Source of the DNA: Muricea muricata
Lineage: Eukaryota > Cnidaria > Anthozoa > Malacalcyonacea > Plexauridae
Direction: 5' to 3'
Assembly: GCA_963855995.1 (NCBI GenBank)
Contig: OY979716.1
Coordinates: forward strand, 34,975,094 to 35,039,093
DNA length: 64,000 nt
In this document: piece after piece, positions 9,732 to 53,583 of the stretch
Numbering within the stretch: position 1 is the stretch's first letter
Layout: the number at the start of each line of letters is the position of its first letter
Made by a program: the position numbers and the translations under genes
Notes under the pieces: generated by a model
The model's database searches: none
What the model was told of the DNA's origin: nothing
What the model saw: only the letters and a program-made list of their open reading frames with translations

Positions 9732-10620
9732 CTAGTTACCGTCTAGTTTAAGATCGAGAAAGTGTGGTGATTCGTCTGAAAATATGTCATAGGCAAACCG
9801 TTTGTTGAGGTCAAAAGAGTGGAATTTGTTCAGGAGGAATTCAATGTCATCATGTTCGATTAATAGCAGTGTGTCATCAACATAGCGGCAATAGAATTTA
9901 ATTATGCCGTAACTGATTAAAGGATTTATTACGAGGCGTTCAAATTCGGTCAGGATAATGTTAGCCATCACTGAACCAAGAGAGCCACCCATGCTAACAC
10001 CATCAATTTTCTCGTAATAGATATCATTGCAGCTGAAGATGGTTTTCTTGTAAGTGTCTCGTATCAGCTTACGTAATGCAGATCTCTTTAATTTCGTTGG
10101 TATTTCTTTCTTATCATAAACGCGCCTTTCGATGATTTGTAGTGTTCTTTCAAGTGGTACATTGGCAAAAAGAGATTCGACATCAGACATAGTTGAATCC
10201 TTGTATGGATCAATTGATTCTATTCGGGATTTTGCATCAAACGTGTCCTTAATGGTGTGCTCGTTAGTTGTTAATGGGCGCAATAACTGACTCAGCAATT
10301 TGCCGATTACGTAGTGGGTTGTTCCAGTTGTATCGATTGTAGGGCGAAATTTAGGTATAATACAAAACAATAGATACTCCGAAGATCGATAATTAGATAA
10401 TATTTATTGTTTTGTATTTTATCAAAATACTCAGTGGTTCCCGTAAATTTAGGTATATGATCTGAGAACAACGTTTCCATCGAGGTTTTATAATCAGAAC
10501 GATACATTATCACAATGCCTTCTCCTTTATTAGGTTTGAGGATGACGTTATCTTCAAGGAGTTGTTTAATACATTTGATTTTGTTGTTGTCAGTTCGAAT
10601 GCGTGGATTGTTGAAGTCAA
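9732..10620 (-). pseudogene. Penelope-like reverse transcriptase fragment
   Basis: The minus strand encodes LLEDNVILKPNKGEGIVIM, then YRSDYKTSMETLFSDH, then after a frameshift near 10,340 KFRPTIDTTGTTHYVIGKLL, DVESLFANVPLERT, DGVSMGGSLGSVMANII, FYCRYVDDTLLLI and SPHFLDLKLDGN. These are the ordered blocks of a Penelope-like reverse transcriptase, with the catalytic YVDD intact near 9880. The fragment lacks the endonuclease end and is cut off at 9732. The frameshift, around the LRSIYCFVLYLNF / FCIIPKFRPT overlap, makes it inactive. It is a different lineage from the copy at 7.2-8.8 kb. Confidence 0.75.
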
Positions 10621-14401: not shown

Positions 14402-15476
14402 TTAATATTTTGTTTCATACCCATTTCTTTGTGATACAGCGTTAATTCGCTTTGGCATACTTGTAATTATATTATCTACATAATCTACAGGGATGTTATG
14501 TAAGGTTTTTATAACTCTACTTTTAAATTCCTGCCATGTCTCTCGTACAATTTGCGAATCTATAACTTGTCGTTCGAGCTCTTTTTTTGCTATATGAAAC
14601 ATGTTTTCGATTGGATTTAAGTCTGGAGATCTTGCTGGAATACAGAATAATTCACAGCATTCTTTCTCTTTAGCTTTGCGAGCAGCAACGCTTCGTTGAG
14701 ATGGATTATTGTCCATAATGAGCCATTTTTGTCCACGCTTACGCGAGAGCAGAACAGGAAACTTGTTCCGTACAAACCAAGCAAAATACCTTCCAGTCAT
14801 TTTCTCGTATTCCCCGACCATAACTGCTCCCTGCTTGTAAGAAATTGCAACGAGTAGGTGCAGACGTTTCCCACCAGCAATACTTTTTGATCCTTTCGCA
14901 GTAACCTGTAAACCCTTCGACCTTTTCCTCCACACCCGCTCTCTTGGAGCTAATGCGTCACCAAGAGGCCTGGTCTTGTGAACAAAACATACCCAGTCTA
15001 AATAGAATGCAATACTTCGAGTGAAGAAATTTGGGCTTGTCGATCGTAATTTCTTGCACTCACGTGCAAATGCTTTTCGTTTCCCTACGGTCACCGTTTG
15101 TTACAACTCCCTGTTTACGTGCTGGTAGAAAGTTAAAACAAGCCGCTTTCACTTCTCGATAAATGGCACGGTATGATATTTCGCGCGATTAAAGGTCACT
15201 TTGAGCAACCTAACGCTGAACAGTAAAGTTTGGGTCTTCATTTCGAATAGTATTAATTGTTCTTACTAGTTTTCTTCGATCTCTGTCTGTCAGCTTCTTC
15301 GGCATACCAATTTTGTTGGGTTTAATTATGCAGTGTTTTTTCGTGACACTGTCTCTCAGAATAGGCGAAACAGATGATTTGGATATATTCGCCGTTTTAG
15401 CAATCACTTTGCATGAATACTTTCTCTCGGCCAAGGAAAAGAACAAATGCTCGCGTCGTATCGAAAATCCGTGCAT
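14402..15476 (-). pseudogene. Tc1/mariner-type transposase relic (DD34E)
   Basis: Minus-strand pieces run N to C. 15476-15210 is a helix-turn-helix region (ERKYSCKVIAKTANISKSSV, GMPKKLTDRDRRKLVRTI). A decayed linker at 15209-15095 has at least two stops (SREISYRAIYREVKAACFNF is recognisable). 15094-14402 is the catalytic region, with FYLDWVCFVHK, WLIMDNNPSQRS and SPDLNPIENMFH, giving Asp, Asp and Glu. Thirty-four residues separate the second Asp from the Glu, the Tc1 spacing. Stops and a frameshift inactivate it. I found no convincing terminal inverted repeats, so the element limits are unknown. Confidence 0.8.
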
Positions 15477-29336: not shown

Positions 29337-29636
29337 AAGAACAGGGCTTGCATAAAATCGCTATAAACACATTTCCCATGGCTTGCAATTTGGACATAGA
29401 TGTAAAATAGAAGCATATTTGCTTTATCTTTGTTAAATCTTTCGATACCGCCGTCTTTCCGCTCTTAAACATCGCCGCCATTTTAAATTTTTCAGGGGGG
29501 TGACGACCTCTCTTCAGCGCACTTGCTAGGAATTTTGAGCGAAAGTACGGTGGCCCACAAGGGACACGGCTTCACTCTTTTATTAACACGCACATTCTTT
29601 ATAGAAGTAAGCCTGCACCACGTGGAAGCATTTTTG

Positions 29637-30140
29637 CTCCGTAGAAACAGGCCTGCTCCGTACAAATACGCCTGCTCCGTACAAATACGCCTGCTCCGTA
29701 AAAATAAGATTGCTCCGTAGAAATAAGATTGCTCCGTACAAACAGGCCTGCTCCGTAGAAATAAGCATGCTCCGTGGAAATAGTCCTGCTCCGTACAAAC
29801 AGGTCTGCTCCGTAGAAATAAGCCTGCTCCGTAGAAATAGGCCTGCTCCGTAGAAATAAGATTGCTCCGTACAAACAGGCCTGCTCCGTAGAAATAAACC
29901 TGCTCCGTGGAAATAAGCTGCTCTGTGGAAATAAGCTGCTCCGTACAAACAGGCCTGCTCCGTAGAAATGAGCCTGCTCCGTAGAAATAGGCCTGCTCCG
30001 TAGAAATAGGCCTGCTCCGTAAAAATAGGCCTGCTCCGTAGAAATAGGCCTGCTCCGTAGAAATAGGCCTGCTCCGTAGAAATAGGCCTGCTCCGTAGAA
30101 ATAGGCCTGCTCCGTAGAAATAGGCCTGCTCCGTAGAAAT
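29637..30140 (+). repeat. 19-bp tandem repeat array in the left terminal inverted repeat
   Basis: About 26 copies of GCTCCGTAGAAATAGGCCT, with variants ACAAACAGGCCT, AAATAAGATT and AAATACGCCT after the fixed GCTCCGT core. Because 19 is not a multiple of 3 and the unit lacks stops, long spurious frames run through it on both strands. The array ends 56 bp before the transposase start codon, so it may hold transposase-binding or promoter sites. Confidence 0.95.
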
Positions 30141-30195
30141 TTATCATATAACCGCTTAAAGAAGGGAGTTAGCCTGCGATCGGGCTGTATTCAAA

Positions 30196-32756
30196 ATGGC
30201 GCAATTTTGTCAGCAATGTGGAACAAGATTAGCCGAGAATACTGCAAATTATTGCCACAACTGTGGAACCCAGATTGCCGGTAAGCTGAAACTATATATA
30301 TATACTTGTTTCTAAATGTTAGTGGTATGTTAGAATTAAACTTCCCAGTACTTATCATACACTCGTGAATCAGTGAAACCTCCATTATCTGATTATCATT
30401 TATCACTATTTCGAAAATTGTGTTCATTATGAGATTGGGTCGTGCTAGAAAGGATCCGTACCCCGCGCGCGAAGGAAATTGAAAATGCTCCTTCTCTAGA
30501 CGTCCTACAAAGGTACGACCTCCCCCCCCACCCCCCTTGACATCTGGATTATCCCTCCCTTCAGTTCAGACATTTTGTTTTTGGCTTATTAAATTTACAA
30601 ACATTTTGTTTGATAAATCCTTCCATACATGTAACTACAGTACCTTTTCTCAAAGTATAACCCCTTTGACAAACTTGCATTGACATGCCTCCCCTGCCCT
30701 GAGGACATCTTGATTAAGACATTTCCCCTGGATAGGAGAATCAAGTATTAAAATGTGCTGAATTGACATACATTTTTAGTTGCTCCAAATTCTTTTAATT
30801 TATAAGACAAGATGGTGACCTCATCCAAAGAATTGTTCTCAATATATCTTCTTGAGGGGGGGGGGGGGGGGGGGGCTTTTCCAAAGATAGGCCTTGAATC
30901 CACCCTTGGTGCATAATAACTCAGACTTGGTTGGTTTTGGACTTTTTTTACTTTGAAATTTTGTCCCACAAGGCTTTTAAATGCCAATTATCACTAAAAA
31001 CTAAAATTCAAATTCATCCCAGGAGCTTAAATCTCATTAAATGAACAAAAATTTATGTAAATTTTGCCACATAAATGTTTGCTGATTAATTAAATTTGCA
31101 TTATCTTTCGTCTGTGTATCTTACTTCGAATTCCCATCAGTGGAAACATTTGATTTCAAGCAACCATTTTTAACACATCATTACTTGGTCATTTTTGGTT
31201 GTATGGTACAGCATGTTTCTAGGAATAGAGAAAAAGTTTTTTAAATACAAAACCTAACTATGATTTGCAGGGGTGTCAGCTAATCCAGATGACCAAGAAA
31301 GAAATGTGATTGAATACTATTTCCATTTGGGTTACAAATATGAAGACATCGTAAATCTGCTTGACGCCTATCATGGTATTTCTGTTTCTACACGTACATT
31401 AAAAAGGAAACTTTTGATGTATAACCTGAAGAAAAAAAATAACACTGTTGATCCTGAATATTTAAAAAATATCATTCAAAGAGAAATGCAAGAATGTGGT
31501 GAACTGTCAGGGTACAGAAAGATTTGGCATCTTCTTCGGATCAATCACCACCTGCACGTGCCGAGAAAGTTGGTTGCCGAAATTGTCTATAATATTGACC
31601 CAGAAGCTAGCAGAGCACGAAAAGGAAACAGATTGAAGCGAAGAAAATACAGATCATATGGGCCAAGTCATTGCTGGCACATAGATGGTTTGTTTCATAG
31701 TGTGCAGTTATGCATACTTGCATGCTTATTACATATACTTGTATATTATTTGTAAGAAGAGTTCTCACATAATTTGAGACTGCTTTTCACCTTTACCCCA
31801 TGTTGCATAATACATAAATGTCGATTTACAGTTAAGCCTGGTTCTCGTATGTCGCCGATTATCGGCGAGTCATTGTCGGTAATCATTCAGGGAGAAAATT
31901 CACAAAGGTTTTACTCACGGGTGATCACAGGCAATGGTGGTCGCCGATGTCGGCGACTTATAACATGAAAACCACGCTGAATTAATCATTCAATCTTCCA
32001 GGTTACGATAAGCTCAAGCCTTTTGGCTTCCCAATCCACGGAGCCATAGACGGATTCAGCCGCAAAGTGTTATGGTTAGAGGTCTGTAAATCAAACAACT
32101 CCCCCACTGAGCCTACTAAGTTATATTTGGATTGCGTAGAAGAGCATGGAGGATGTCCTATGATAACTCGCACAGATTACGGCACGGAAAATTGCAACAT
32201 CGCAGCGCTTCAAAGTTATTTTAGATCAGACGAAGACGCCCATAAATATGGAACATCGACCAGAAACCAACGAATCGAAAACTGGTGGTCACATTTTCGC
32301 AAATCATGCGCGCATTTTTGGATAAACTTTTTCAAAGACCTGAAAGATAATGGATCAATTGATCTCGAACAACCTTTGCACAGGGAATGTTTATGGTTTT
32401 GTTTCAACAGTATTATACAGTCATCTCTGAACGTAATCAAAGAATACTGGAATACGCATTATATTAGACCATCGCGTCATGACACTGTTCCAGGGGTTCC
32501 TGACATTTTGTTCTATTTACCCGAGCGCTCAAATGGTTCAAACTGTCTCGTTCCGGTTAGCAACGATAGAATTGCTGAGATGAGAACACCTCACATGATC
32601 ACTGAGAACACGGAGGAAGATACGTACGAGGAAAACCTTTTCCAAGAATACTTCCAGTACGTTGTTGACCATGAAGAGCTAGAATATCCTGACAATGCAG
32701 ATGAAGCAATTCTTTTGTTTTCGTACTTAATAGAAAAAGCAGGAGAGGCACAGTAG
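30196..32756 (+). CDS. DDE integrase-type transposase with N-terminal zinc ribbon (3 exons, 418 aa)
   Basis: Exons 30196-30280, 31271-31687 and 32002-32756 join in phase 1 at both junctions and give 1257 nt ending in TAG. Exon 1, inside the terminal repeat, encodes a zinc ribbon (FCQQCG...YCHNCG, C-x2-C-x11-C-x2-C). Residues about 40-80 are helix-turn-helix-like (NVIEYYFHLGYKYEDIVNLL, STRTLKRKLL). The retroviral/IS3-type integrase core follows: WHIDG with D167 at the exon 2/3 junction, FGFPIHGAIDGFSRKVLWLE, TRTDYGTEN with D226 and NQRIENWW with E260, so all three catalytic carboxylates are present. It should cut and join the transposon ends. Donor 1 is GTAAGC and acceptor 1 TTGCAG; donor 2 GTTTGT is weaker and acceptor 2 is TTCCAG. 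No stop or frameshift is visible. Confidence 0.9.
30856..30875 (+). repeat. G homopolymer in transposase intron 1
   Basis: An uninterrupted run of about 20 G. Its length is likely to be unreliable in any assembly. Confidence 0.9.
31835..31981. mobile_element. Harbinger-like MITE in transposase intron 2
   Basis: Left AGCCTGGTTCTCGTATGTCG and the right end (complement of TTCAGCGTGGTTTTCATGTT) are inverted, each followed inward by TCGCCGA..TCGGCGA. TTA flanks both ends (31832-31834, 31982-31984). It sits wholly in the intron and does not disturb the splice sites. Confidence 0.6.
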
Positions 32757-33043
32757 AAAGCTACCGCGTAGCCAGGCTGGGTACGAGGTTAAGGAGACAG
32801 TTGCATGTTAACATATATACATTTTCAAAAATACATTTTTCTAAAAGTCGCTTAAATCGTAACAATCGCAGCGAGGCATAAACCGTATATACAGTAAGGA
32901 AACCATCAATTGTAACAAACTGCAACATCATTAATGTAAATATTCACGTATTTCTTTAAATCATTCGCTTATCTGTTGTGCCTCTTGTAAAACAAAAACT
33001 GAAAACAACTTAATTGGTATATCTTCTTTATGGCTCACGCGCG

Positions 33044-36000
33044 TTACAGCAACCCGAACCCTATTCCTTCAACAAGAGCAGAATTTATGGACTCCTTGAA
33101 TAGGCTATAATCCTCGTGGTAGTGCACAGGTAAGGTAATACTAAGATCACAGGTCGACGCGGTAGGTCGGCACTTGCATCGTTCTAGGCAGCCATGCTTA
33201 AATTTTGCCGTGATTTTTTTGGGCAAACCAAGTGGAGGGATGTGTTCGCTTCCAGTAATGAACTTGTGCAAAATACATAGTTGGTTATCACTGCTTTCTG
33301 TAATGAAAAAAATATTTCGATATGTAACATTTAAAAGGTAACCGAACTTTTGCATATCCAATTTAGAAGATGACTTTCTATTTTACACGTTTTTTTCCTT
33401 GTATAAACTATCTTACTGTCTCTTATTTGTAGATGTATACCTCCTGACGAGTCGCACTCTAAGTCTTGTAAAAGGTCACTAAAAAACTTGAACGTGTCGA
33501 TTTCTTTCACTTTCAAGTTGATACCATCCTCGCTAAAGTCAGGGATGATTTCATCCAACAACGTGTTTGCAGAAGGACAAAATCTGGCAGCATATCTCGC
33601 CACGAAAAGCGATTCCATAACAGACCGATTTACTTTCACAGCCATCATTACATCACAGTAATTTAGACCAACTGTAAGTTGGTCTAACATCGGCAAATAA
33701 GTTGCAAAATCGTACAGAACAATTGCTCTAAGAGAAAAAAAAAGAGACAATTCAAATGAAAATAATGCATACTCGGCATTGTACTTTTATTTAAAAGAAA
33801 AAACGGGGTTTTTTTAACGTATACAACAAGATAGCTAAGACTCTTTCAAAGTTCGTTTTCGACTGCCTAAAGTCACTAATCGTATAAACGCGATTGCGAT
33901 CATCCTTTACCTTACAATATTATCAGCGTTCGATAATTTTTGTTTTGATGGAACTCCACGAAAATGGATATTTTCTAGAACGTCCATCATCACTTCATCT
34001 GACAATAAGTTTTGCAAATTTAAATTACTAGTGCATTTTTTTATCTACAAGGGAAAATAAATTACTGACTGTTGGATTTATCTACAAATCATTAATTTAA
34101 TCATCCCTAAAGAAAAGTTATTTAAATCTAAATGGTTGATATATTCTGTACAGCCAGGGTGATGTACACGTCCCGTGAGATTTTTGAACCTATACCTTGA
34201 GAATTTAAACACCTCCCTAAATCATTGCTAAGAAAATTGAATTGATGATTCAAAACTTAAAATTAATTAACAAAAAAATGTAACAGTAGTTGAATTTGAG
34301 CCTGCAGCTCAACTTCTGCGCCTAATCCCGTTAGAATTTTCCCAAAATCCCGCTTTTGGTAAACAAAGAACAACGCGTCGATGATGCATAAAGTATTAGT
34401 TGGATCTGTACAATAGCGTATGACAACTATTTATCAGGAGTATATGTCAGCAAGTTTTACTTCATGCGCTAATAATCATACCATATCAATAGCTTCTAGC
34501 AAGTTTTTATCCTTGATGTATGGATACCACTTCTCGCTGGTAATGCTTGCAACACCTTCAGACATGTATAAATATGCAACTTCAGAAAGGAAACAAGGAG
34601 CTGGCCCTCCTTGTACGATGGAAGCAGCCATCAGTTCTCCGGCTATCTTGAACTTATCGCATCCAAGAGCAGTCATATCACGAACTGGCAAGCCATTTTC
34701 AAACATTTCACGTTTAATAGTTTGAAGTACCTCTACATTAAAAGAGCAAAATAGATTGAAATTAATAACAGTGTGACTTGGTACCATACAACTGCAATCA
34801 TGGTGTCTACGCCTTTAATCACAGCGAACGCTCGTGAGTAGGTTAAATTGAAATCTATAGCCAAAATAAAAAATACACTAATAACCTGAAAAGAACTCGC
34901 GACGTGGTCCGCCGTCGTCAACGGCCGGTTCACCCACAAAGGTTATCTTAAACAGCCTTTTGTTGTTGAACCATTGCTTCTGAGAGGCTGTGAGGTAATC
35001 GTTAAAGACTTCCTTTCTTCTGACATTTATTCTGATTTTAACTTCCTCCACATTTGATGCACACTCGTTGATCAGATCTTTCATCTTTTCCATTTGATCA
35101 TTCTGAGGTATCCTCTTAGCTTCCTCACTACCATCAAAGCATTGTTCTGGAGGATCAGAATCATACTGAAAAAGTTCAGTATCTGAAACGTCGCCAATAG
35201 GATCAAATCTATTGTCAATGCACAAATTTGCATGAGTATCAATGACATCCATTGGAAATTTCCAAAAGCAAGAAGGGCAGACAGCTTCTGGTGTTTTCTT
35301 TTTGTGTTGGTCATTATCATGTATTTCAATAGCTTCTTTTACTTCCAATTGGGACACAAGCTCATCATCATCAGTCTCTGCGTCAGTAAACTCAGCAACC
35401 ATTTCAAAATCAGTCTTACTACAGAGATAAAAATATATTTTGGAATATGCTTTACCCAGATCTCTTTTGTAATCAGAAAGGCTAAACTCCTTGAGGCTTC
35501 CTGGCAATGTTATGACTTGAGAGGTGTCTGGATACAAAAGAACATACTCAGCATGTTTGCTGAATTGTTTAAAATGTTTTGAATGTTTTTCTACAGCTGC
35601 ATTCAGCAAGTTAGCAGCATTAGAACTGTTATGAATTTGTAGTGGTAGTGTCCTTCCCTTTAAACGTTTAAGCCTTGCGCCTTCTGCTTCCACAATACCG
35701 ACTTGGACTGTGACTGCCTCTGGGGTCTTTTTCTTTTTTTCTGACTGCATTTGATTAGTTCGAGTTAATCTTTTCCTTTTTTTAAACTCGTCATAATTTA
35801 ACGTTGACTTGGGCGTTGACAAAGTAGCTGATGTGGAACTGGTATTCTTTAAAGTTGTGCTTGTTGTCTGCTTTCCTACAGATATTGATTTGAAGAAAGA
35901 AAATTGAAGACTTGTGACTATATGTATATGTAGTCCTATTATAGGCCTTATGCCTAATAATGTGACGTGTTTGTCTTGCTATTATGCAGTCAACATTAGT

Positions 36001-37127
36001 GGGGGTTAATTTCAACTATAATGGGAATTATGCTGTACTAGAGTGAGCTAATATGAAATTGCATAGTTGTTACCAAACACAAGACCAACATGTACATTGT
36101 AAATATAATTCATTCTCTATTCTACGTTGGAAGGTTTTCTATTTTTAATTTTACTTTTAGAAATGTGGTAACTTCAACTAACATCTGATCCCCACCCTAC
36201 GCGACCCCAATGATTTCTTGATCCCTTAATAACACACCGTAAGGAATCTTCAAACTTTACTTAAATAAACCCTTAAAGAAAAATTGAATGAAATGTCCCA
36301 CATCAAAAGATTGAATAAGAAATGCATATACATCACCTCAAAATTAAATTGTACAATCAAATGCTAATTTTGTACCATATGGCCATGGGGGGGGGGGGGG
36401 GGGGTAAATTTAACTAGAGCAATAATTGTAGGGTGTGTGAATATTCATGTTCACCCTGACAAATTTCTTTTTAAATGTGTTCATGTATTGAGCTTGTCAA
36501 ATCAATGAATTTCAAATGAAATTTGTCGGGCAGAATGCGAATATATCAGTATTCACCCTCACCACAAATTATTGTTCTAGCTACGGTCCTGTCTGCCATT
36601 TCTGACGACATGGGAATAACTAAATGCAAAAGTCTGTTAACTTCCATCACAATGTAGATTTTTGCATTTTAGGCAGCTGGCATTAATGTGACAACTTGGT
36701 AGTTTGTACAAATAGTCTTTCGCTCTGCCATTGTGAATGTATTTTTGGGTGGTGTAGCCCCCCGCTTGTACTTCTGGAGGGGCCAAAGCCCATCTAGCCC
36801 CCCCTGTTCTGCCACCCCTGCGACACATCATTTTTGGCAAAACATCAACATGTGCAACATAAAAATCTCTCACGACACATACAGCGCTATCAAAATCTAG
36901 GGAAATTTTCCCAGATTTATGCATTCTACGTAGATCAACTTAAAAATACAAAATATAGATGTTCAAAGTGATGTTATAAATACAATGCTAGTAGGATGCT
37001 GTAAAATCTATCTTATATGCAAAATTTGTAATTTCAGCTTACCGGCAATTTGGGTTCCACAGTTGTGGCAATAATTTGCAGCATTCTTGGCTAATCTTGT
37101 TCCACATTGCTGACAAAATTGCGCCAT
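33044..37127 (-). CDS. HECT-type E3 ubiquitin ligase encoded by the transposon (6 exons, 666 aa)
   Basis: Exons on the minus strand are 37127-37043, 35875-34886, 34732-34482, 34044-33911, 33727-33441 and 33297-33044. All junctions have GT/AG and matching phase, totalling 2001 nt with no stop. Exon 1, in the right terminal repeat, encodes the same zinc ribbon as the transposase (FCQQCG...YCHNCG). Residues 228-248 are a C2HC zinc finger of UBZ type (CPSCFWKFPMDVIDTHANLC). From about residue 330 a HECT domain follows: LFKITFVGEPAVDDGGPRRE, FFSEVLQTIKREMF, GPAPCFLSEVAYLYMSEGV, ITGSEHIPPLGLPKKI and RPTASTCDLSITLP, with predicted catalytic Cys632. It resembles G2E3-like ligases. It should pass ubiquitin from an E2 to a substrate, which is unknown. 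It is convergent with the transposase, 287 bp apart. Confidence 0.88.
36387..36404 (+). repeat. G homopolymer in E3 ligase intron 1
   Basis: A run of about 18 G abutting the left end of a MITE. Its length is uncertain. Confidence 0.9.
36405..36591. mobile_element. MITE related to the hAT MITE at 8300, in E3 ligase intron 1
   Basis: CTAGAGCAATAATTGTAGGG at the left pairs with CACAAATTATTGTTCTAG at the right, and the end CTACGGTCCTG parallels GCCACGGCCCTG of the 8300-8482 element. Its left terminus seems eroded by the G run, so no target duplication can be read. Confidence 0.55.
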
Positions 37128-37185
37128 TTTGAATACAGCCCGATCGCAGGCTAACTCCCTTCTTTAAGCGGTTATATGATAAATT

Positions 37186-37635
37186 TCTACGGAGCAGGCC
37201 TATTTCTACGGAGCAGGCCTGTTTGTACGGAGCAATCTTATTTCTACGGAGCAGGCCTATTTCTACGGAGCAGGCCTGTTTCTACGGACCAGGCCTATTT
37301 CTACGGAGCAGGCCTATTTCTACGGAGCAGGCTTGTTTGTACGGAGCAATCTTATTTCTACGGAGCAGGCCTATTTCTACGGAGCAGGCCTATTTCTACG
37401 GAGCAATCTTATTTCTACGGAGCAATCTTATTTCTACGGAGCAGGCTTATTTCTACGGAGCAGGCCTGTTTGTACGGAGCAGGACTATTTCCACGGAGCA
37501 GGCTTATTTCTACGGAGCAGGGCTGTTTGTACGGAGCAATCTTATTTCTACGGAGCAATCTTATTTCTACGGAGCAGGCGTATTTGTACGGAGCAGGCGT
37601 ATTTGTACGGAGCAGGCCTGTTTCTACGGAGCAAA
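37186..37635 (-). repeat. 19-bp tandem repeat array in the right terminal inverted repeat
   Basis: About 23 copies of the complement of GCTCCGTAGAAATAGGCCT, the mirror of 29637-30140. The two arrays differ in copy number and in the order of variant units, so they have rearranged since they were identical. The array lies about 60 bp upstream of the E3 ligase start codon. Confidence 0.95.
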
Positions 37636-37788
37636 AATGCTTCCACGTGGTGCAGGCTTACTTCTACGAAGAATGTGCGTGTTAATAAAAGAGTGAAGCC
37701 GTGTCCCTTGTGGACCACCGTACGAAAGGCCGTTACGACAAAATCATACGAAAAGTGATGAAGTGAGCCCTCTGTGTAGTACTCTGTG

Positions 37789-38877: not shown

Positions 38878-39989
38878 CTATCACGTCTACAGAGAACGTG
38901 AAATAACAATTTCAAAAGTCATTGGTACTTTAAAATTCCAATTTCCAACTTCTTGCATACAAACTTTAATATTGTAGGCGCATTGATTGGACATTGGAGC
39001 GTTTCGATCAGCTAAAAGACGAAAAGTTCAACTGAGAACTGTTTAATGCAACATCATATTATACAGAATATTGATTACTACAGAAACGATTTACGCACAC
39101 GTTAATTTGTTTTCACGAAACGAACGATTTTTGTGAAAACATATAAACAATTAAGTGCGTAAATACCGTTCAACTGTACCGGCTTGAGCGAGCCCAAATG
39201 CAATATAATGAAATTCAGTGCGCGTTTCGCTTTGTATTCAGTTAAGCTTCGCTTGCGATTGGTTATTGTTTCGCGCTTGACAAAGTCACAGTTTTCATTG
39301 GCTAGAGGAGAATTATTTGTTATTCACGTGCATCACTCATTTGCATGCTCTAAATCATGCACCTTGGAACGAGTCTGGCGTATATCTGACATGATGACAA
39401 CCTAATTGTGCCGCATGCAGGATGCATGTCTGGTTTTGCCAAAACCAAGACATTATAAACCGTAATCTGATCAGAACGTTTCCTCATTAACTTCATTTTA
39501 TTAATAGCTTACAGCTTAATAAAATTGGCTAAACTGTGTCGAAAACAATACGGACTTTTATGAAGAATGCATTCGTAAACAGTCAGCTGTTTGGACTCGG
39601 AAAATAAAGCGTTGTTGTTGCTATGCTTTTCTCTCGAAAATATGTGGTTTTCTTCAAAAAAAATTGTGTGTCGAAAATATGTGGTTTTCTTGAAAAAAAA
39701 TTGTGTGTAATTTTTGTGTGTTGATCGTTGTAGTTTCTCACAACTAAAAAACCATGACAAAGTTTGTTTGATTTTTGCATACTAATATCGGACTTGCAGG
39801 TGTTTATAATAGCCGCATAGTCTTCAAAGCAACTCGCAAAAAGGAAATTCAACCTCAATACAAAAATCCGTCACCTGCATTTGGTAAAAAAGTTACTGAG
39901 TTCGATTTGAAGAAATTAGAAGGTGGTTTAAAATCAACAATCTTATGTGATTATTTTCAAGGCCTTTTAAAATCTAATCGCCATCAACC

Positions 39990-40889
39990 ATGGGTTACAA
40001 TGAGTATTTGGAAGGTCTACCTTCAAAGAGAGTTTATATTGATGCAAATTTGCATGTCTCTCAACTTTACAATAACAATATTAGAGAATCAGTACTAAAT
40101 GAAATCACTGTTCCAGACTTCTCTGAAGTATGCAAGCACCTACCATCTCAAGATTATGCACCATTTGTTCAAAACTATCTAGTATATACTACAAAAGAGC
40201 AGATGGTTGAGTTAGAACGTAATACAAGAGGCCAATCAGATTGTACACTTTGGTTTGAAGAAAGGAGGTCCCGTTTGACCGCCTCCAATTTTGGTTCAGT
40301 TATTAAACGAAAGAAAAATATATTTCCAAAATCCCACTTACAAAAAGTGCTTTCCTCAGCAACAAGTCAGTCCAAGACACCAGAATCATGTTTGTGGGGT
40401 AAAACTAATGAGCAAGTTGCTATAGCAAAATATTTGGAGCAGTTAAAATCTGATGAAAAATCTGTGACTGCTTGCACACAGTGTGGATTATTTAAAAACA
40501 CTGAAACTCCTTGGCTTGGAGCCAGTCCAGACTGTCTGCTACATGACCCTGATGAAGAAATGCCATTGGGGTTAGGTGAAGTTAAGTGCCCATCATCTAA
40601 GAAAGACATCACAATTTCTGAAGCATGTCAGGATCCATCTTTTTTCCTAGCTGCACCGAGCAACAAACAGAGCAAACCCACTTTAAAGCATCATCATAAC
40701 TACTACTTCCAGGTACAAGGCCTGATAGCAGCATGCAAAGTGAAGTGGGCGGACTTTATAGTATACACTAAGCAAGAAACATTTAGTGAAAGAATTTACT
40801 TTAACACTGAATTGTGGTATAAAACAATGCTACCAGAATTAATTTCATTCTATTTTACATACTTATATCCAGAATTAACAAAACTGTAA
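39990..40889 (+). CDS. YqaJ-like PD-(D/E)XK nuclease of the ISL2EU element
   Basis: 299 residues from the first Met of the conserved block. Motifs in order are LWFEERRSRLTASNFG (residues 88-102), CLWGKTNEQ with Glu141, PWLGASPDCLLH with Asp181, LGLGEVKCPSS with Glu197 and Lys199, and HHNYYFQVQGLIA with Gln241/243. These are the core residues of the YqaJ/lambda-exonuclease-type fold, which digests DNA from ends. ISL2EU proteins often carry more sequence N-terminally. An overlapping frame at 39775-40050 (QPQYKNPSPAFGKKVTEFDL) may be that part, displaced by a frameshift or intron. The product's role in transposition is not established. Confidence 0.82.
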   Translation: MGYNEYLEGLPSKRVYIDANLHVSQLYNNNIRESVLNEITVPDFSEVCKHLPSQDYAPFVQNYLVYTTKEQMVELERNTRGQSDCTLWFEERRSRLTASNFGSVIKRKKNIFPKSHLQKVLSSATSQSKTPESCLWGKTNEQVAIAKYLEQLKSDEKSVTACTQCGLFKNTETPWLGASPDCLLHDPDEEMPLGLGEVKCPSSKKDITISEACQDPSFFLAAPSNKQSKPTLKHHHNYYFQVQGLIAACKVKWADFIVYTKQETFSERIYFNTELWYKTMLPELISFYFTYLYPELTKL

Positions 40890-40901
40890 AAATACAAAAA
40901 A

Positions 40902-42269
40902 TTAAGTCTTACATTCTATTTCACTATTTGCATTGATTAAGGAGGGATAAAACAATGTGAGGTAGGAACAAATTACCCAAATTTTATTAAGGTCTGATGA
41001 CATTTTTAATGGTAAAACATTGCTTAGTATTTTATAACTTTTTATTCGTTGTATCGCTCTTTCCACATGTACCCTGAGTGATGCTATCTTCCTTGTTTTA
41101 ACTTCATCCTGAAGTGATAATTGTGGTGCACCATCCAAGAATGGTGGTATATTTAGCCCAACACCAGGAGGCATCTCATTTTCTATATCAAACCCTCTGT
41201 CTGCCATAACTTGATCTCCAGACTCAAGTAAATTTAGAATACTGCAATCTTTGGTAATCTGTTTATCACTAGAACGCCCCGCATAAAGCTCTGACACAAA
41301 TGTAGGATAACCTGCTGGGGAAATGCCCAATAGTCTTTTAGCAGTGTTATGATTGTTTTATGCTGAGTATGTAGCTGACTGGCTTCGAAATGAAGTTGGC
41401 TCTACAATAAATATCTCAGTACAGTCAATTATTACTCTTGTATCTGGATAAGTATTTTTAAAAGATTCTGGCATGGTTTTTTGTATATATTCCTGTGATG
41501 CCCAGATTGGAATTGCCCTTAGTCTGTGGTATAGGAACTCCAACCAAGTGACCCCAATGCGAGAAACTTGCGTCTCTGAAATACTAAATCTAAAAGCTAA
41601 GTCTGGCCCCATTAGCCCACATCGTAAGCGAACAAGTATCATAAAAAGTTCTTGCTCTGGTGACATTGAACGTGTTCCTCGCACTTTTTGCTGTGTTTCT
41701 AGGGAGTATTCTGTGTTGCTATTTGAACCAGCATCGTTTAAAAATTGACAAGCAGGTTGGAGGTAGTCAAAGAATGCTTTGAATGTTTGATAATTTTGAA
41801 AGCCAGTATAAAATTTAAAGGTTGTGTTACTGGCAAGCACATGTTCAATTTGTAGTACAGATTGTGTATACCTGCAAGTCAACTCTTCACATTTCCCTTT
41901 TAATGCAATATTTTCTGCCCTAAGTGTAGCTTGCTCATCATTTGACTCCTGTAATGTGGTTTCTTGTTGCTCAAACTTGGTCAGGTCTTGAACATCAGAA
42001 ATTGTATTGCAGTCAGGAGTAATATCATTTCTGCCTACATTGCTGTTAAAAGTTTGCCTCCCTGAACAGTTTAGTACAGTGGGTAGCGCACCAAATGACT
42101 TTTTCCCACCAGGAAAGTGCAAAGAACAAACTTTATGACTTTTTAAAGGTTGTTTATCAATGCCTAATAAATTCAGCCACGTTTCTTTTATATCCAAATC
42201 TTTCGGGCATTGGTGAAAGGACAATTCAGGATTGTTCAAGCTGTTGCTTTTACAAAAGGCACACAGCAA
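40902..42269 (-). pseudogene. THAP-domain DDE transposase of the ISL2EU element, one nonsense codon
   Basis: A single minus-strand frame of 456 codons is broken only by a TAA at about 41358. N-terminal THAP zinc finger: CAFCKSNSLNNPELSFHQCP to SHKVCSLHF (C-x2-C ... C-x2-H). A coiled-coil stretch follows (NDEQATLRAENIALKGKCEE), then helix-turn-helix (DLAFRFSISETQVSRIGVTW) and the DDE_Tnp_4 core with VIIDCTEIF, VMADRGFD and RVHVERAIQRIKSY supplying Asp, Asp, Glu. The stop falls between ATYSA and NNHNTAK, where the family usually has Tyr. The initiating Met is also missing: the frame opens after a TAA 30 bp upstream with no ATG before the first zinc Cys. The copy is inactive or relies on an unseen upstream exon. 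Confidence 0.82.
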
Positions 42270-42629
42270 GTCGTCCCTCCATGAATTTTGCTTTTACTAT
42301 GGTCTTCTTGTCTTGTATTGTCCATTTGTTTACAAAAAATACATTTGCAAAACGTTGGAAAAAATAGTCGCCGAAGGAACAGTATTTGTTTACATTTTTG
42401 TGGAAATTTTAACTTGCCAAGAACAGTAAATAGCCCTTAAAAGTGCTTTTGACAACAGTGAAAATATTTTGAACAACAAAGCTCGTTTTGAGATATAAAC
42501 ATTTCGCGCCAAAACAGCCTCAATGTTTTGGTTTGTGAAAAGAACGTTTGATCAAGCATGTGTTGTTTTAGGCCGATCAAGTATACAAGCAACTTCGCTT
42601 CTCAAGCCGCTAAAAACCACGCGATCGCT
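42270..42629. other. 5' flank of the ISL2EU transposase
   Basis: No gene recognised. It should contain the transposase promoter on the minus strand. Confidence 0.35.
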
Positions 42630-48019: not shown

Positions 48020-51000
48020 TCAAGGCCATTTTGAAATAAAGTCATCGATCGTCAGCAGGGTTTGTTCTGCTTCTAAACGCACACGTACATAGTTTTTAAA
48101 GAAGTTTACACTAGAAATCTTCTGATCCTTTTTATATTTATACGAGACACGTTCCTTCCAAGCCGAGAATTTTCCAACACTTATTAAATAACGGAGAAGT
48201 TCACGCGCAGCACCATGAGGAAAACAGCCCAACAAAATGTTCTTTTCCGAAAAGCCATGCACCGAAGGATCAATGCGCCCACACAATCGAAGAATATACA
48301 TCCAGAGACACTGGATCTTAGGACAATGCACCAAAACTTGGTCTAGCGTCTCAGATCGAGCACCACAACGAGCGCAGCATTCTGGCATATGATGATTCCA
48401 TCGGTGTAAATGAGAATTAACCGGTAAAATCCGGTGGATCGTTCGCCAGTCAACGTCACGCAGCAGAGGATCATTCCAATATTGTGAAACATCTTTCCAC
48501 ACCTCCTTCCAGTTCACTCCGGGACCGAACTGTTCATTCCAGCGAAGTTCAAACCGTGCCTGAATCGGAGTGATACAATCTTTAACACCAACCATATAAT
48601 AAACTTTACTCGGTTGTGGCTGCGATGAATCCACAGAAAATTCGCGAAGAACACGCAAGAAACAACTGTAGAACGGGGTCGAAATGTCACAATTAGGACG
48701 GGTATTGTCATTAATACCAAGAGCTCGGGCCACGAAGTACCTCATTATCTCTTTCCAAGAACCGTCGCTATCATCGAGGAAACGAAAGAGACGACCAATG
48801 AGCAAAACTTTAACTCGAAGTTCAACGTAAACGATTCGTAGACCACCATTAACGAAATTGGACATGCACGTCTCGCGCCGTACTAATTCAGGTTTCCCGG
48901 ACCACACAAATTTCCATATTGATGACTGGAGAGAATCAATGACGTCACGACAAGGTCGATAAATCTTCGCCACATGCCAGATAGTAGAGACGGCTAAACT
49001 CTCAAGCACGGTTGCTTTTCCGCGAAGAGTTAAGAACCGAGGGCGCCATTTCTCGATGACGCCGGAAAATTTCACCCAAGTCTCATTCCAAGTCTTAGTA
49101 CTCGCATCTTCATTACCAAAATAGAGACCAACAATTTTCAAACTCGTGTTTAACCATACAAGCCCACAGGGAGAGTCGGTGCGCGATTTCCAACGACCCA
49201 ACCACAGACCTTTCGTCTTGGAAACATTAAGACGGGCGCCCGAAGCCCGGCCATATTCGTTGAACACCTCAAGCACTTTAACGAGACCGTAAGAGTTGGT
49301 GACAATACAAGTATTATCATCTGCATACTGAGAGATCTTAACCTCACGTCCACCTGGAACACAAAATCCTTGTATTTCCGGACATTTTCGAATCGCTTAG
49401 GCAAACACCTCTGCCACCAGTACAAATAACAGAGGAGACAAGGGACATCCCTGACGCACCCCACGTTCCACGGCGAAGAACTCGGACACATAACCGTTGG
49501 ATAAGATGGCACTTTTAATGTTCGTGTAAATACAAGTGATCATGGAGCGAAAGTTAGGGCCAAAGTTCATGGTTTGAAGAATTCGATCAAGAAACTCCCA
49601 ATCAACATAATCAAACGCTTTCTCTCGATCAATTGAAATGAAAGCACAAGCCATTCGTTCATGAACCTCAAGATAGTCGAAAATGTCGCGAAGAAGAGTA
49701 GCATTATCGTCACTGGACCGTCCTGGCACGGAACAACATTGGTCGGGATGCACGATAGTAGACATGAGAGGCTTGAGACGATTTACCAACACTTTTGTCA
49801 AGATTTTGTAATCGACATTCAACAGCGAGATTGGACGCCAGTTTTTTAACAGCTCTGGATCATCTTTTTTGTACAGCAAAGAGATAACAGCTTGACGCAA
49901 AGTCTCCGGCATCATCTCGTCAGTAAAACAAGTATTGACCATATCGACAAAATCATCCTTTAAAACAGGCCAAAATGTAATGTAAAATTCTTTTGATAGG
50001 CCATCTGATCCAGGTGTCTTTCCATTGGACATGTTCTTAAGGGCAGCTAAACACTCCCCTTCAAAGAACAAGCCTTCACACAAGTTTCGCTGCTCATTCG
50101 AAAGTTTTCTGTCAAGCAAACCAAGTAGCCGATCTTGCGCAGTACCATCTGTGGCAACGCGAGCATAAAATTGAGTATAGAACCGAACCTGCTCACACAT
50201 TATGTCTGCTTGATCCGTTAACCGACGACCATCACACGTACGTAGAGCTGGACATGTCTTTTTAACAGCCCGTTTCCGTTCGCGTTGAAAAAAGAACTTC
50301 GAAGGACGCTCATTATTTTCAACCCACTGGGCCTTGCACCGGATATTATGACCACGAACCGGCCGAAAGTCAAAATTCGACAACTCGAGTTTAACCGCAT
50401 CTAATTCTTTAATTTCACTATCGGACAGGGAGCCTTGAGTTATCAAACGCCGATACTTATTAAGAACACTTGCGCGCGTCTGTCTATTCTTCATGGCGAT
50501 TTTCTTGCTACATGCGATCAGGAGTGACTTGATACGAGCTTTCCCTGCATCCCACCATTCACCCACGTTACTGAACAACGCCTTTTTTGTCTTCCAGTCA
50601 GTCCAAAATCGTTGCACTTTGTCTCTCACAGACTTATTGTCTAACAGGGAAGTATTCAGTTTCCAAAGAATAGGACCAACATTATGGCTGGAACTAACGA
50701 CTTGGATCTTCAGGTGAACAATGTCATGATCTGAGTATGGATAAGTAATAATGTTGGACTCCGTCACGTAATCCTTTGCGAGGGAAGAGGACACATAAAA
50801 CTTATCTAGACGACAGCAAATTGTTCCAGTTTTATTGCGCCATGTAAACTCTAAAGCATGTTCATGTTGTTGTCGCCATATATCCACCAAGGAAAATCGA
50901 GTCAGCACTTGCTTAAGATGAGGACCACCCGTACTACCCAAAGTAGCATTTCCGCCGCGTTTATCTTTGGCCAGATCAAGTAGACAATTAAGATCTCCAC

Positions 51001-51418
51001 CGATAATTAAACGACGACGAGTAACCAGATATCTGTCCAGGTTTTGAAAGTAATCTATTCGCTGACTGCCATCTGTTGGAACATAAATGCTGATAAAGCG
51101 GAAGTCCTGATTGCAGTATGAACAGTCCAGCATAATTATTCTACCTTCGTCATCGCAACGAAAACTACAGTTTTTAAAACGAGAAGGGTCACGCACTAAA
51201 ACACCAACACCACAGCTCTTACTTGTGCCAAGACTCCAATATCCTTTCAAACCGGATTCCTTATTCCACAAAATACAGTCTTCAACAGATGCCACATGAG
51301 TTTCTTGTAAAAATATTACATCAAACTTTTCCAACTTTAAATAATCAAATAATAGACAACGTTTTTTAAAGTCACGTAAGCCATTAACATTCAACGTAAT
51401 CAGATTAAGATCGGCCAT
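48020..51418 (-). pseudogene. LINE ORF2: endonuclease and reverse transcriptase, one nonsense codon (unit 1)
   Basis: A frame of 1133 codons is broken by a single TAA at codon 674 (49397-49399), where unit 2 reads CAA. N-terminal endonuclease: ITLNVNGLR, FLQETH, YVPTDG, IIGGDLNCLLD and YSDHDIVHL. Reverse transcriptase from about residue 450: GKTPGSDGLSKEFY, NWRPISLLNVDYKILTK, FISIDREKAFDYVDW, VRQGCPLSPLLFVLV and, after the stop, ISQYADDNTCIV with the catalytic YADD. Near the end comes a zinc-binding motif CCARCGARSETLDQVLVHCP. The enzyme nicks target DNA and copies LINE RNA at the nick. Apart from the stop it looks intact, so inactivation is recent. It starts immediately after the ORF1 stop, in the same frame. 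Confidence 0.9.
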
Positions 51419-52918
51419 TTATCGTTTAGTACGTTTCCCACGTTTCGATCGCGGTTTCCCTACACGACCAGTAAGGACAGGTTTATCTTTCGCCCGCGAA
51501 GATTCTACCGGAGGCCGTTGAGTGTTCTCGGAGGACAAGTCTCCCACTACCGGGCGCGTGTCATCATCAATCGGACCGCTACCAACAGCCACAAAAGCAG
51601 ACACGGGATCATCAGGGGTAGTATGGGGTGCCTCTGCCATGATTTCGTCGCCCGAGCAAGAAATACCACTGATTTCATCATCACCATCCCCGGCAAAAAG
51701 GGATTGCTGACTGAGTTCGGTACCACCGACCTGCGAGTCGACTTGGTTGATATCATCATTATTCAAAGGTGGAATTACAGGATCATCACTAGAAAGAGAT
51801 TGCTGACTGAGTTCGGTACCACCGACCTGCGTGTCGACTTGGTTGACAGCATCATTATGCATAACACGGTCATCAACGATCTCGTCTACACGGCGATTGG
51901 CAGGATTGTCAGGGCACTCCGATCGTACCTGACCAAAAGAACCACACAGGAAACATTTATAACAATTCCGCTGAATATGACCATCGTTGCCACAGCGAAA
52001 GCATTTTACATCATTGATGCAGGTGGCAACACGATGCCCGTAGGAGCCACAGCGACCACATTGAGGAACTTGCCCACGATAACGGGATTCCACTTTAAAC
52101 CGACCGATAGAAAAACGGCGAGGAATACCTTCCGTTAACTCAGTCATCCTGGCAATACGAGCCCCGGATTCAACACCGGGCCAATCACGAAACATTTCAC
52201 GATCCACGGATAACACTTTGCCGTACTTCGCAAGGAACTCACTCACCGTCTGGTTAGATATTTCGTCAGGGACATACAAGATCTTCACAATCAGCGCAGG
52301 AGTATCAAGCTCCTGGGCGATGATGCGTTCACCACGAAACAGAAATTCTTTGTCAAGGAATGTTTGCTTAGCTTCGAGGGAACGAAAGGAAATTCTGTAA
52401 CGAGGACCGGGAATTTGTTGAAGGCACTTAATGGACGCAACCGGTATGTGTTTTAAAATAGCCAACATAACTTCACGCACATTCACATCCTTGAATGCTT
52501 CCGTGTGTAAAACGACCGTCTTGGGACGAGCAATCCGCCCACCCCACTGAACACCTGGCAATGGTACAGCCGGTTGATGGGTACCCGCTCCACCCGCATC
52601 AGCAACAATATCAGCCCAGGATAGGCCACCACCTTGACTTTGATCACGACCAACATCACCACCAGGAGCCACAGCATCACCACGAGCAACATCACCTACT
52701 CGAACTACACCGGCACCACCACCACTTCGTCCAACTTCGCCAGCATCAACAATATCTCTTCCGCGTACAACGGAACCATCACGAACCACGTCACCATCAC
52801 GAGCCGCATCACCAACACCAACGTTGTCAGCACGACCGATGTCTCCACCACGAGCCAAGTCATCAGATACTGCACCAAGATTCACCACACTCCTTTCTTC
52901 TTGTCTTTTGGTTTCCAT
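51419..52918 (-). CDS. LINE ORF1: zinc-knuckle RNA-binding protein (unit 1, 499 aa)
   Basis: Open from ATG at 52918 to TAA at 51421-51419. Residues about 15-100 are low-complexity Gly/Asp/Val/Arg repeats (VGDAARDGDVVRDGSVVRGR). Residues about 205-280 resemble an RRM (LIVKILYVPDEISNQTVSEF, YGKVLSVDREMF). Residues 287-334 hold three zinc knuckles: CGRCGSYGHRVATC, CFRCGNDGHIQRNC and a third lacking the His (CFLCGSFGQVRSEC). The tail is acidic, with a direct repeat containing VGGTELSQQSL, and ends in a basic patch. ORF1 proteins coat LINE RNA in the cytoplasmic particle. The next codon after the stop is the ORF2 ATG. Confidence 0.88.
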   Translation of the reverse strand: METKRQEERSVVNLGAVSDDLARGGDIGRADNVGVGDAARDGDVVRDGSVVRGRDIVDAGEVGRSGGGAGVVRVGDVARGDAVAPGGDVGRDQSQGGGLSWADIVADAGGAGTHQPAVPLPGVQWGGRIARPKTVVLHTEAFKDVNVREVMLAILKHIPVASIKCLQQIPGPRYRISFRSLEAKQTFLDKEFLFRGERIIAQELDTPALIVKILYVPDEISNQTVSEFLAKYGKVLSVDREMFRDWPGVESGARIARMTELTEGIPRRFSIGRFKVESRYRGQVPQCGRCGSYGHRVATCINDVKCFRCGNDGHIQRNCYKCFLCGSFGQVRSECPDNPANRRVDEIVDDRVMHNDAVNQVDTQVGGTELSQQSLSSDDPVIPPLNNDDINQVDSQVGGTELSQQSLFAGDGDDEISGISCSGDEIMAEAPHTTPDDPVSAFVAVGSGPIDDDTRPVVGDLSSENTQRPPVESSRAKDKPVLTGRVGKPRSKRGKRTKR

Positions 52919-53583
52919 ATCCAAATCAAATTTAAAGATTTATTCGTGAATGAAGGAAAACCAGAGTTACTCAAATAATTAAAGCGATCATATTAAATAT
53001 ATACGACATCCATGCAATCTATTTGTTGTGGTGGGTGGCACAGCCTATGAAGATGTGCACGTGACTCGAATATCCCGTTTTCAATTGTAACATACCCAGA
53101 GTAAATTTCTCTGGGCGTAAACGCACCAAAATTACATCGTTTGCATTTCGAGTAATGAGCAGTGACTTCGAAACAATCAAAAATTTTTTTTTACATAAGG
53201 CAATAATACACGACGAGTTCCTATTAACAATACAATAATCCAATTACCTTTATCCTTAGACCGAAAACTAATAAGTTTTTACAATTTACTCGCTTCTCGT
53301 TGGTCATTTTTTAGTTGTTGTAACACAAATAAACCAGAAAATCGGGTAATATAAAATAATAATCCCCTCTGAATTACCTATTTTTAATAATTATAGCTCA
53401 AGCATTTATTTTATCTGTTACCATTAGCCACGTTTTTACTGGAATTTATTGGCAACGATGATTCCAAAAGATATGCTGACGAACCATGCCAAATGAAATT
53501 ATTACTGAACATCACGACATACGATGAAGTAATCAAAATATCAAAGGCCTATAACCGAACAAAAGTCCGGATTGAATCGCCAA

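What the first reader, a model, noticed from the sequence alone, without database searches (positions are those of the whole stretch)
29546..37722. Transposon whose terminal inverted repeats encode a shared zinc-ribbon exon for both of its genes
Seen directly: each 0.7 kb terminal repeat contains an ATG and an 85-bp exon (30196-30280 and 37127-37043) encoding FCQQCG..YCHNCG and ending in a GTAAGC donor in phase 1. The left copy splices in phase to the integrase-type transposase, the right copy to the HECT ligase. Both proteins thus begin with a near-identical zinc ribbon supplied by the DNA ends themselves. Inference: the shared module could target both proteins to the same place, for example the ends, each other or a host factor. 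Any new cargo captured behind a terminal repeat would automatically receive the tag and promoter. I know of no described element with this design.
Basis: partly seen in the sequence, partly recalled or inferred. Interest (0 to 1): 0.88.

Follow-up and report, generated by a model that had tools for sequence, protein, structure and literature searches.

The report
Jumping gene whose ends encode protein
This is a cut-and-paste DNA transposon in an animal genome whose two mirror-image ends each contain the same small protein-coding exon, so its two opposing genes (a transposase and a ubiquitin ligase) are both predicted to start with almost the same zinc-binding tag; such tags occur in many related elements, but carrying one inside the DNA ends was seen in only some families.

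Summary
Window 29546-37722 is a transposon with TACGG..CCGTA termini, a 6-bp target duplication (CGAAAG) and ~0.7-kb inverted repeats, each holding an 85-bp zinc-ribbon exon with a phase-1 donor (3 differences). The left exon joins in frame to a DDE transposase, the right to a HECT ubiquitin ligase. Termini and TSD fit the IS3EU/GingerRoot superfamily. A second copy 0.43 Mb away has its own TSD, both exons and uninterrupted coding frames.

Relatives change the interpretation. N-terminal ribbons on both proteins also occur in families where they lie outside the repeats and differ between the two ends. In two separated lineages (window with sister R1; R9, 5 of 5 copies found) the repeat covers the ribbon exon, wholly or in part. 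R9's ligase gene also keeps a second, inner ribbon exon. Best reading: end-to-end copying lets the repeat boundary move inward and exchange or homogenise first exons.

So the layout is confirmed and recurrent; 'the ends supply the tag' holds only for some families; a selected shared tag, or tagging of captured cargo, is unproven. No RNA evidence was available. Full-text searches found no IS3EU-HECT or shared-exon description; Repbase could not be searched.

The parts
29540..29545 (.). left target-site duplication CGAAAG
   Evidence: repeated at 37723-37728
29546..30294 (+). left terminal inverted repeat (TACGGTGG...), including leader and ribbon exon
   Evidence: aligns to the right end, 667/694
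29635..30140 (+). 19-bp tandem array, 26.7 copies, inside the left repeat
30196..30280 (+). transposase exon 1: ATG + CxxC..CxxC zinc ribbon, phase-1 donor GTAAGC
   Evidence: (zinc-ribbon Pfam matches)
31271..31687 (+). transposase exon 2: HTH region up to the first catalytic Asp (D167)
   Evidence: gene model
32002..32756 (+). transposase exon 3: rest of the integrase-type core (D226, E260) and stop
   Evidence: gene model; PF24764 rva_4 9.4e-33; catalytic columns invariant in 33 relatives
33044..33297 (-). HECT exon 6: C-lobe with catalytic Cys639 and stop
33417..33727 (-). HECT exon 5
   Evidence: gene model
33911..34044 (-). HECT exon 4
   Evidence: gene model
34482..34732 (-). HECT exon 3
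   Evidence: gene model
34886..35875 (-). HECT exon 2; acceptor in phase with exon 1
   Evidence: gene model; acceptor
37043..37127 (-). HECT exon 1: ATG + zinc ribbon, phase-1 donor GTAAGC
37029..37722 (-). right terminal inverted repeat, including leader and ribbon exon
37183..37633 (-). 19-bp tandem array, 23.7 copies, inside the right repeat
37723..37728 (.). right target-site duplication CGAAAG

Best explanation
It is a recently moved IS3EU/GingerRoot-type DNA transposon with two convergent genes, a DDE transposase and a HECT E3 ligase. In the wider group one or both proteins often begin with a short CxxC..CxxC zinc ribbon, frequently on a separate first exon with a phase-1 donor just inside the terminal repeat. 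In the window family the repeat has extended inward over that exon: one end's terminus, leader and exon 1 were copied onto the other end (probably by gap repair or gene conversion between the inverted ends) and have stayed nearly identical. Both genes therefore take leader and ribbon from the repeat. The same happened separately in family R9, where the ligase end carries a copy of the exon found at the transposase end and also keeps its own inner ribbon exon. Shown: anatomy, TSDs, copy structure, recurrence, families without it. Inferred: splicing, promoters in the repeats, the copying mechanism, and the ribbon's task, which I take to be a contact module bringing ligase and transposase to one complex.
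For: Anatomy and identical leaders. Second copy, same design, own TSD, both reading frames uninterrupted. 9 of 10 fetched relatives have TACGGTGGCC..GGCCACCGTA ends with a perfect 6-bp TSD; in R4 no right end was found. All 10 carry transposase and HECT matches. Genome-wide 31 of 45 HECT matches have a scored transposase within 6 kb, all 31 convergent; about 0.2 expected by chance. The ribbon is fused in one reading frame with the transposase in R5 and with HECT in R8, and heads single predicted proteins of other genomes: transposase 54 of the 115 listed hits of 340 aa or more, HECT 18 of 47 hits. R9: exon identical over 181 bp at both ends, phase-compatible acceptors on both genes, plus an inner HECT ribbon; 10 places = 5 copies x 2 ends, 9 of them at 100%. 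R1: leaving out a 437-bp hAT-like insert with 8-bp TSD, its ends match 87/88 bp before the ATG and 57/60 bp into the exon, then diverge. Controls: the R5 transposase-side ribbon exon has 6 full-length places, one per copy, and the R3 one 4. R9 lies far from the window clade on the transposase tree, which argues for separate events.
Against: No RNA. No direct observation of end-to-end copying. Direction of copying rests on a weak classifier: ribbons from other genomes separate with AUC 0.95, but 3 of the 6 separately located HECT ribbons of this genome (R2, R8, R10) are misread, the R3 transposase ribbon too, and the window's left exon scores near zero. Between the two window-family copies the HECT frame has 12 nonsynonymous and 2 synonymous codon changes, no sign of short-term constraint. 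Exon 1 differs from R1 mostly by nonsynonymous changes, though all four cysteines are kept. A left/right-specific site in exon 1 is shared by both copies, so homogenisation is not complete. A single old exon-in-repeat state with losses is not formally excluded.
Confidence: 0.75

Rival explanations
1. Passive by-product: long repeats drift inward and include whatever exon lies there; sharing the ribbon has no function of its own. (This and the next rival are two answers to why the layout exists; both are compatible with the best explanation's anatomy.)
For: Repeat length varies from about 170 to 750 bp and its inner boundary falls before the ATG (R3, R5), inside the exon (R1), about 15 bp past the donor (window) or some 245 bp past it (R9), as expected of a wandering boundary.
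Against: The exon stays open, phase-correct and with all four Cys in the repeat-borne cases read (window, copy 2, R1, R9).
Confidence: 0.55
2. Selected shared-tag design: the ribbon is kept in the repeats because transposase and ligase must carry matching ribbons (to bind the ends, each other, or one host factor).
For: Recurs in two separated lineages; nearly identical ribbons within window-family elements; all four Cys kept in window, R1 and R9.
Against: R3/R6 and R5 have clearly different ribbons at the two ends; R7, R8 and R10 transposase frames start without a ribbon, while R8 and R10 HECT have one; R9's ligase gene keeps a distinct ribbon of its own. Matching ribbons are therefore not generally required.
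Confidence: 0.25
3. The repeat-borne ATG exon is not used as coding exon in one or both genes; an unseen other first exon is used.
For: No RNA data; the Paramuricea HECT relative P0121 is predicted without a ribbon.
Against: First in-frame Met after exon 1 is residue 78 (transposase) or 71 (HECT); fused ribbon proteins exist for both genes; phase-1 donors at 11 of 11 donor sites checked, 7 elements' exons counted per end.
Confidence: 0.1
4. Assembly artefact or a one-off inverted duplication at this locus.
For: Inverted repeats with tandem arrays are prone to misassembly (general knowledge, not tested).
Against: Second copy with a different TSD; five R9 copies with the same layout; each of the 9 complete relatives has its own TSD.
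Confidence: 0.02

Closest known systems
IS3EU/GingerRoot DNA transposon superfamily (PMC10045372, passages read)
   Same: TA..TA termini, usually 6-bp TSD, DDE integrase-type transposase. Fungal IS3EU end TAYGG..CCRTA (PMC12730594, passages), matched by TACGG..CCGTA here.
   Different: No HECT gene and no ribbon exon in the repeats is mentioned in the passages read; 'HECT' occurs 0 times in PMC10045372. Placement by phylogeny could not be tested (Repbase sequences not held).
Fungal IS3EU with accessory genes (PMC12730594, passages read)
   Same: Transposase and an accessory gene in opposite orientations inside one IS3EU element.
   Different: The accessory gene is an alpha-kinase (with TET/JBP between), not HECT; no shared exon in those passages.
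Maize MuDR (PMC3440606, passages read)
   Same: Two convergently transcribed genes; ~215-bp TIRs hold the transposase binding site and the promoters of both genes.
   Different: Different superfamily; the passages place promoters and transcription starts, not a shared coding exon, in the TIRs.
RAG-like transposons (PMC7204232, abstract start seen in the listing)
   Same: Two convergently oriented genes between TIRs.
   Different: Different transposase family and partner gene; no shared exon mentioned in what I saw.
Foldback-type transposons such as Tetris and Tm1 (search listings only)
   Same: Long inverted repeats, often with internal short repeats (recalled).
   Different: No coding exon shared through the repeats is known to me (recall).

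Membership tests
IS3EU/GingerRoot superfamily | TA..TA termini | tested here: met
   TACGGTGG..CCACCGTA in the window; TACGGTGGCC..GGCCACCGTA in 9 of 10 relatives
IS3EU/GingerRoot superfamily | 6-bp target-site duplication | tested here: met
   CGAAAG (window), ACTTTC (copy 2); 9 of 10 relatives
IS3EU/GingerRoot superfamily | DDE transposase core of integrase type | tested here: met
   PF24764 rva_4 at 9.4e-33; catalytic columns invariant in 33 relatives
IS3EU/GingerRoot superfamily | groups with known IS3EU transposases in a tree | not testable with these tools
   Repbase sequences not held; placement rests on termini, TSD and core type
HECT E3 ubiquitin ligase | HECT domain with C-lobe catalytic cysteine | tested here: met
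   PF00632 match to residues 592-673 of the window protein, Cys639 in TASTCDLSITLPVHY; a profile of 25 relatives (window protein not included) matches solved HECT domains over profile positions ~329-645, best E 4.1e-15
HECT E3 ubiquitin ligase | ubiquitin transfer activity | not testable with these tools
   needs an assay
MuDR-like two-gene layout (works like, not a member) | convergent genes with promoters in both TIRs | tested here: inconclusive
   convergence met (31 of 31 pairs within 6 kb); promoter function not testable (the only promoter scan is bacterial)

The most novel reading that the evidence does not exclude
The terminal repeats of these transposons act as an exon-exchange device: by spreading inward over the first coding exon they repeatedly copy an N-terminal module from one gene to the other (possibly in opposite directions in different families), keeping transposase and ubiquitin ligase matched, or giving one gene a choice of first exons as in R9.
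Probability: 0.35. Interest if true: 0.78.

Novelty: new variant of a known kind. Interest (0 to 1): 0.62.

Why it matters
Terminal inverted repeats are usually regarded as transposase binding sites and promoters; here they carry a coding exon for two different proteins, and this is seen in two separated lineages. It gives a concrete route by which a transposon can spread a protein module between its own genes, and raises a testable question: why do a transposase and a transposon-borne ubiquitin ligase start with the same kind of zinc ribbon? A HECT ligase as a regular partner of an IS3EU-type transposase also points to ubiquitin-based control of transposition or of host silencing (inference).

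Tried and rejected
Assembly artefact: rejected (second copy, R9 copies, distinct TSDs). Ribbon as unused leader: disfavoured (no in-frame Met until residue 71-78, fused forms). Single origin of the exon-in-repeat state: not formally excluded, but R9 and the window family are far apart on the tree and R3, which groups with the window clade, has it outside the repeat.

Direction of copying: a position-specific score separates transposase-type from HECT-type ribbons (leave-one-out AUC 0.94, 0.95 with outside ribbons only, 49 and 18). R1-left and P0002 score HECT-like (0 of 49 transposase ribbons as low), R9's repeat exon transposase-like (+5.5). But the window's left exon is near zero (-0.17), three genome HECT ribbons (R2, R8, R10) of six and the R3 transposase ribbon are misread, so I use it only as a hint.

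Led nowhere: PDB search with the window transposase and with the profile of its relatives (no match); viral contigs (no relative); Rfam on the window (0 matches); bacterial promoter scan (not informative); structure prediction of the Acropora HECT relative (accepted, not finished, so no model is used); Revolver paper (passages: no shared exon in them).

In one search some rows (R1 and R3 transposase side) printed empty because no stop lay in the stretch, and its donor pattern missed the R3 HECT site; donors were recounted.

Papers: searches. 'IS3EU': 35 papers, 20 listed. 'IS3EU'+'HECT': 0. 'zinc ribbon'+'HECT'+'transposase': 0. Five terms on HECT and DNA transposons: 0. 'HECT'+'DNA transposon'+'Repbase': 48, of which 15 listed, titles and abstract starts only. 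First exon/TIR terms: 27 papers, 12 listed. Repbase reports and most subscription papers are not in this library.
Full report
WHAT IS THERE. The element at 29546-37722 is 8177 bp long, flanked by the 6-bp duplication CGAAAG, with termini TACGGTGG..CCACCGTA. Its ends are inverted repeats of 749 and 694 bp, 667 of 694 aligned positions identical; much of each is a 19-bp tandem array (26.7 and 23.7 copies). Each repeat finishes with a leader, an ATG (context AAAATGG) and an 85-bp exon encoding a CxxC..CxxC ribbon, then GTAAGC in phase 1; the two exons differ at 3 of 85 positions. Identity is complete for the 60 bp before the ATG and collapses about 15 bp past the donor.

THE TWO GENES. Joining exons at GT-AG sites gives a 418-aa transposase (integrase-type core PF24764, E 9.4e-33; catalytic D167, D226, E260) and, on the other strand, a 674-aa HECT protein with Cys639 in the expected C-lobe position. 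Pfam matches the window protein only over the C-lobe (592-673); a profile of 25 relatives matches solved HECT domains of HUWE1, TOM1 and E6AP over about the whole domain (best E 4.1e-15). After exon 1 no in-frame Met occurs before residue 78 (transposase) or 71 (HECT). Splicing is predicted, not observed.

SECOND COPY. A copy 0.43 Mb away (C1:34571877-34579965) has TSD ACTTTC, both repeat-borne exons and the same reading frames of 1257 and 2025 nt without internal stops. Aligned bases are 98.8% identical (MAFFT; the longest blastn piece gives 97.6%). Transposase: 4 synonymous and 3 nonsynonymous codon changes; HECT: 2 and 12, so no short-term constraint on HECT is visible. A left/right-specific difference in exon 1 is shared by both copies, so the ends are not fully homogenised at each move.

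RELATIVES IN THE SAME GENOME. The transposase core query has 148 matches among 931 candidates, of which only 148 were scored. I read ten further loci (R1-R10; R3 and R6 are two copies of one family). All ten have transposase and HECT matches. Nine have both termini TACGGTGGCC..GGCCACCGTA with a perfect 6-bp TSD; R4's right end was not found. Of 45 HECT matches (76 scored), 31 have a listed transposase match within 6 kb, all 31 in convergent orientation; 14 have none (chance about 0.2). Transposase plus convergent HECT is therefore a regular layout here.

WHERE THE RIBBON SITS. Among the 11 elements with both ends known (window, copy 2, nine relatives; R4 left out, it has a transposase-side ribbon), a ribbon is found on both genes in 7 (window, copy 2, R1, R3, R5, R6, R9), on HECT only in 3 (R2, R8, R10) and on neither in 1 (R7) (a regular-expression search, so degenerate ribbons may be missed; R2's transposase frame has no start of its own and may have an unseen first exon). 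It lies inside both repeats in the window, copy 2 and R9. In R1 the repeat reaches 60 bp into the exon; a 437-bp hAT-like insertion (name inferred from its 8-bp TSD CATGTAAT and ends) separates leader and ATG at the right end. In R3, R6 and R5 the repeats stop before the ATG and the two ribbons differ (DNA comparison for R3 and R5). The R5 transposase and the R8 HECT protein have the ribbon in one uninterrupted frame with the body. All 11 donor sites recounted (window x2, R1 x2, R2, R3 x2, R9 x3, R10) are in phase 1; no donor was found for the R5 HECT ribbon.

RECURRENCE. R9's exon is identical over 181 bp at the two ends, with phase-compatible acceptors for both genes; its HECT gene also has a distinct inner ribbon exon. 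A genome search found that exon at both ends of five copies (10 places, 9 at 100%, one at 99%; an eleventh weak 70% match lies elsewhere). The R1-type leader and exon occur at both ends of R1 (the right end in two pieces, split by the insert), in two inverted pairs 2.7-2.8 kb apart on C3 (one pair full length at both ends, one with a partial right match) and at one single place. Controls behave differently: the R5 transposase exon has six full-length places, one per copy, and a weak partial seventh; the R3 exon has four, one per copy, plus an inverted pair of partial matches about 0.5 kb apart. The R4 exon occurs once.

OUTSIDE THE GENOME. 1767 proteins match the transposase, 120 listed; of the 115 with at least 340 aa, 54 have a strict ribbon in the first 80 aa and 61 do not. 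47 HECT relatives were found (only the 7992 candidates sharing most words were scored), 18 with a ribbon, including Acropora muricata P0122 (ribbon and C-lobe motif in one protein) and a Priapulus protein; most are partial, 3 of 47 having the C-lobe motif. On a 123-row tree (114 listed proteins, window, R1, R2, R3, R5, R7, R8, R9, R10; left out: five short proteins, P0030, R4, R6, copy 2) the ribbon state needs 11 changes (at least 5 forced by strong branches; 41 in shuffles). The window pairs with R1, then with Porites P0002 and R3, while R9 sits in a distant clade of 34 rows otherwise scored as ribbonless. That score is unreliable for split genes, since single-exon predictions miss exon 1.

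HOW IT PROBABLY WORKS. The simplest account is a repeat whose inner boundary wanders: before the ATG (R3, R5), within the exon (R1), just past the donor (window), or some 245 bp past it (R9). Copying from one end to the other during gap repair would move it and overwrite the other gene's first exon. R9, with the outer exon shared and an inner ligase ribbon retained, looks like such an event caught midway. A classifier hints that the R1/P0002 ribbon is of ligase type and R9's of transposase type, but it is weak and nearly neutral for the window's own left exon. The ribbon's task is unknown; I think it most likely a contact module bringing ligase and transposase to the same complex, since it heads both genes in several families. 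Identity of the two ribbons is evidently not required, because R3 and R5 have different ones.

WHAT IS KNOWN. TA..TA termini and usually 6-bp TSDs mark IS3EU/GingerRoot (PMC10045372, passages); fungal IS3EU end TAYGG..CCRTA and carry transposase and alpha-kinase genes in opposite orientations (PMC12730594, passages). MuDR has two convergent genes with promoters inside its TIRs (PMC3440606, passages). A coding exon shared through the TIRs, or HECT in IS3EU, was not found in the searches named in Tried and rejected. I therefore call this a new variant of a known kind.

Noticed in passing
window 39978-42293: Next to the element: a YqaJ-like nuclease frame (+, 39978-40886) facing a THAP/HTH_Tnp_4 transposase frame (-, 41361-42293); looks like an ISL2EU-type transposon (name recalled).
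   Followed up: no
window 48023-52939: LINE-like retrotransposon on the minus strand (zinc knuckle, endonuclease, reverse transcriptase frames); further RT or endonuclease pieces at 9735-10403 and 62853-63998.
   Followed up: no
window 14405-15100 and 55627-56175: DDE_3 and Tc3-type HTH frames, pieces of Tc1/mariner-like transposases (family name recalled).
   Followed up: no
G000:C3:4361012-4363859 and C3:16508058-16510965: Inverted pairs of R1-type leader plus ribbon exon 2.7-2.8 kb apart: probably internally deleted elements that kept the exon in both ends; interior not read.
   Followed up: partly
G000:C1:34643268-34643965: Two R3-type ribbon-exon pieces (86-89%) in inverted orientation only about 0.5 kb apart, a foldback-like arrangement.
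   Followed up: no
R9 element, G000:C1:39698250-39706195: The HECT gene has two candidate ribbon first exons with phase-1 donors (outer in the repeat, inner about 0.5 kb further in): possible alternative N-termini.
   Followed up: partly
window copy versus L005: HECT frame: 12 nonsynonymous and 2 synonymous codon differences between two uninterrupted copies, against 3 and 4 for the transposase: relaxed or diversifying change in the ligase; numbers small.
   Followed up: no
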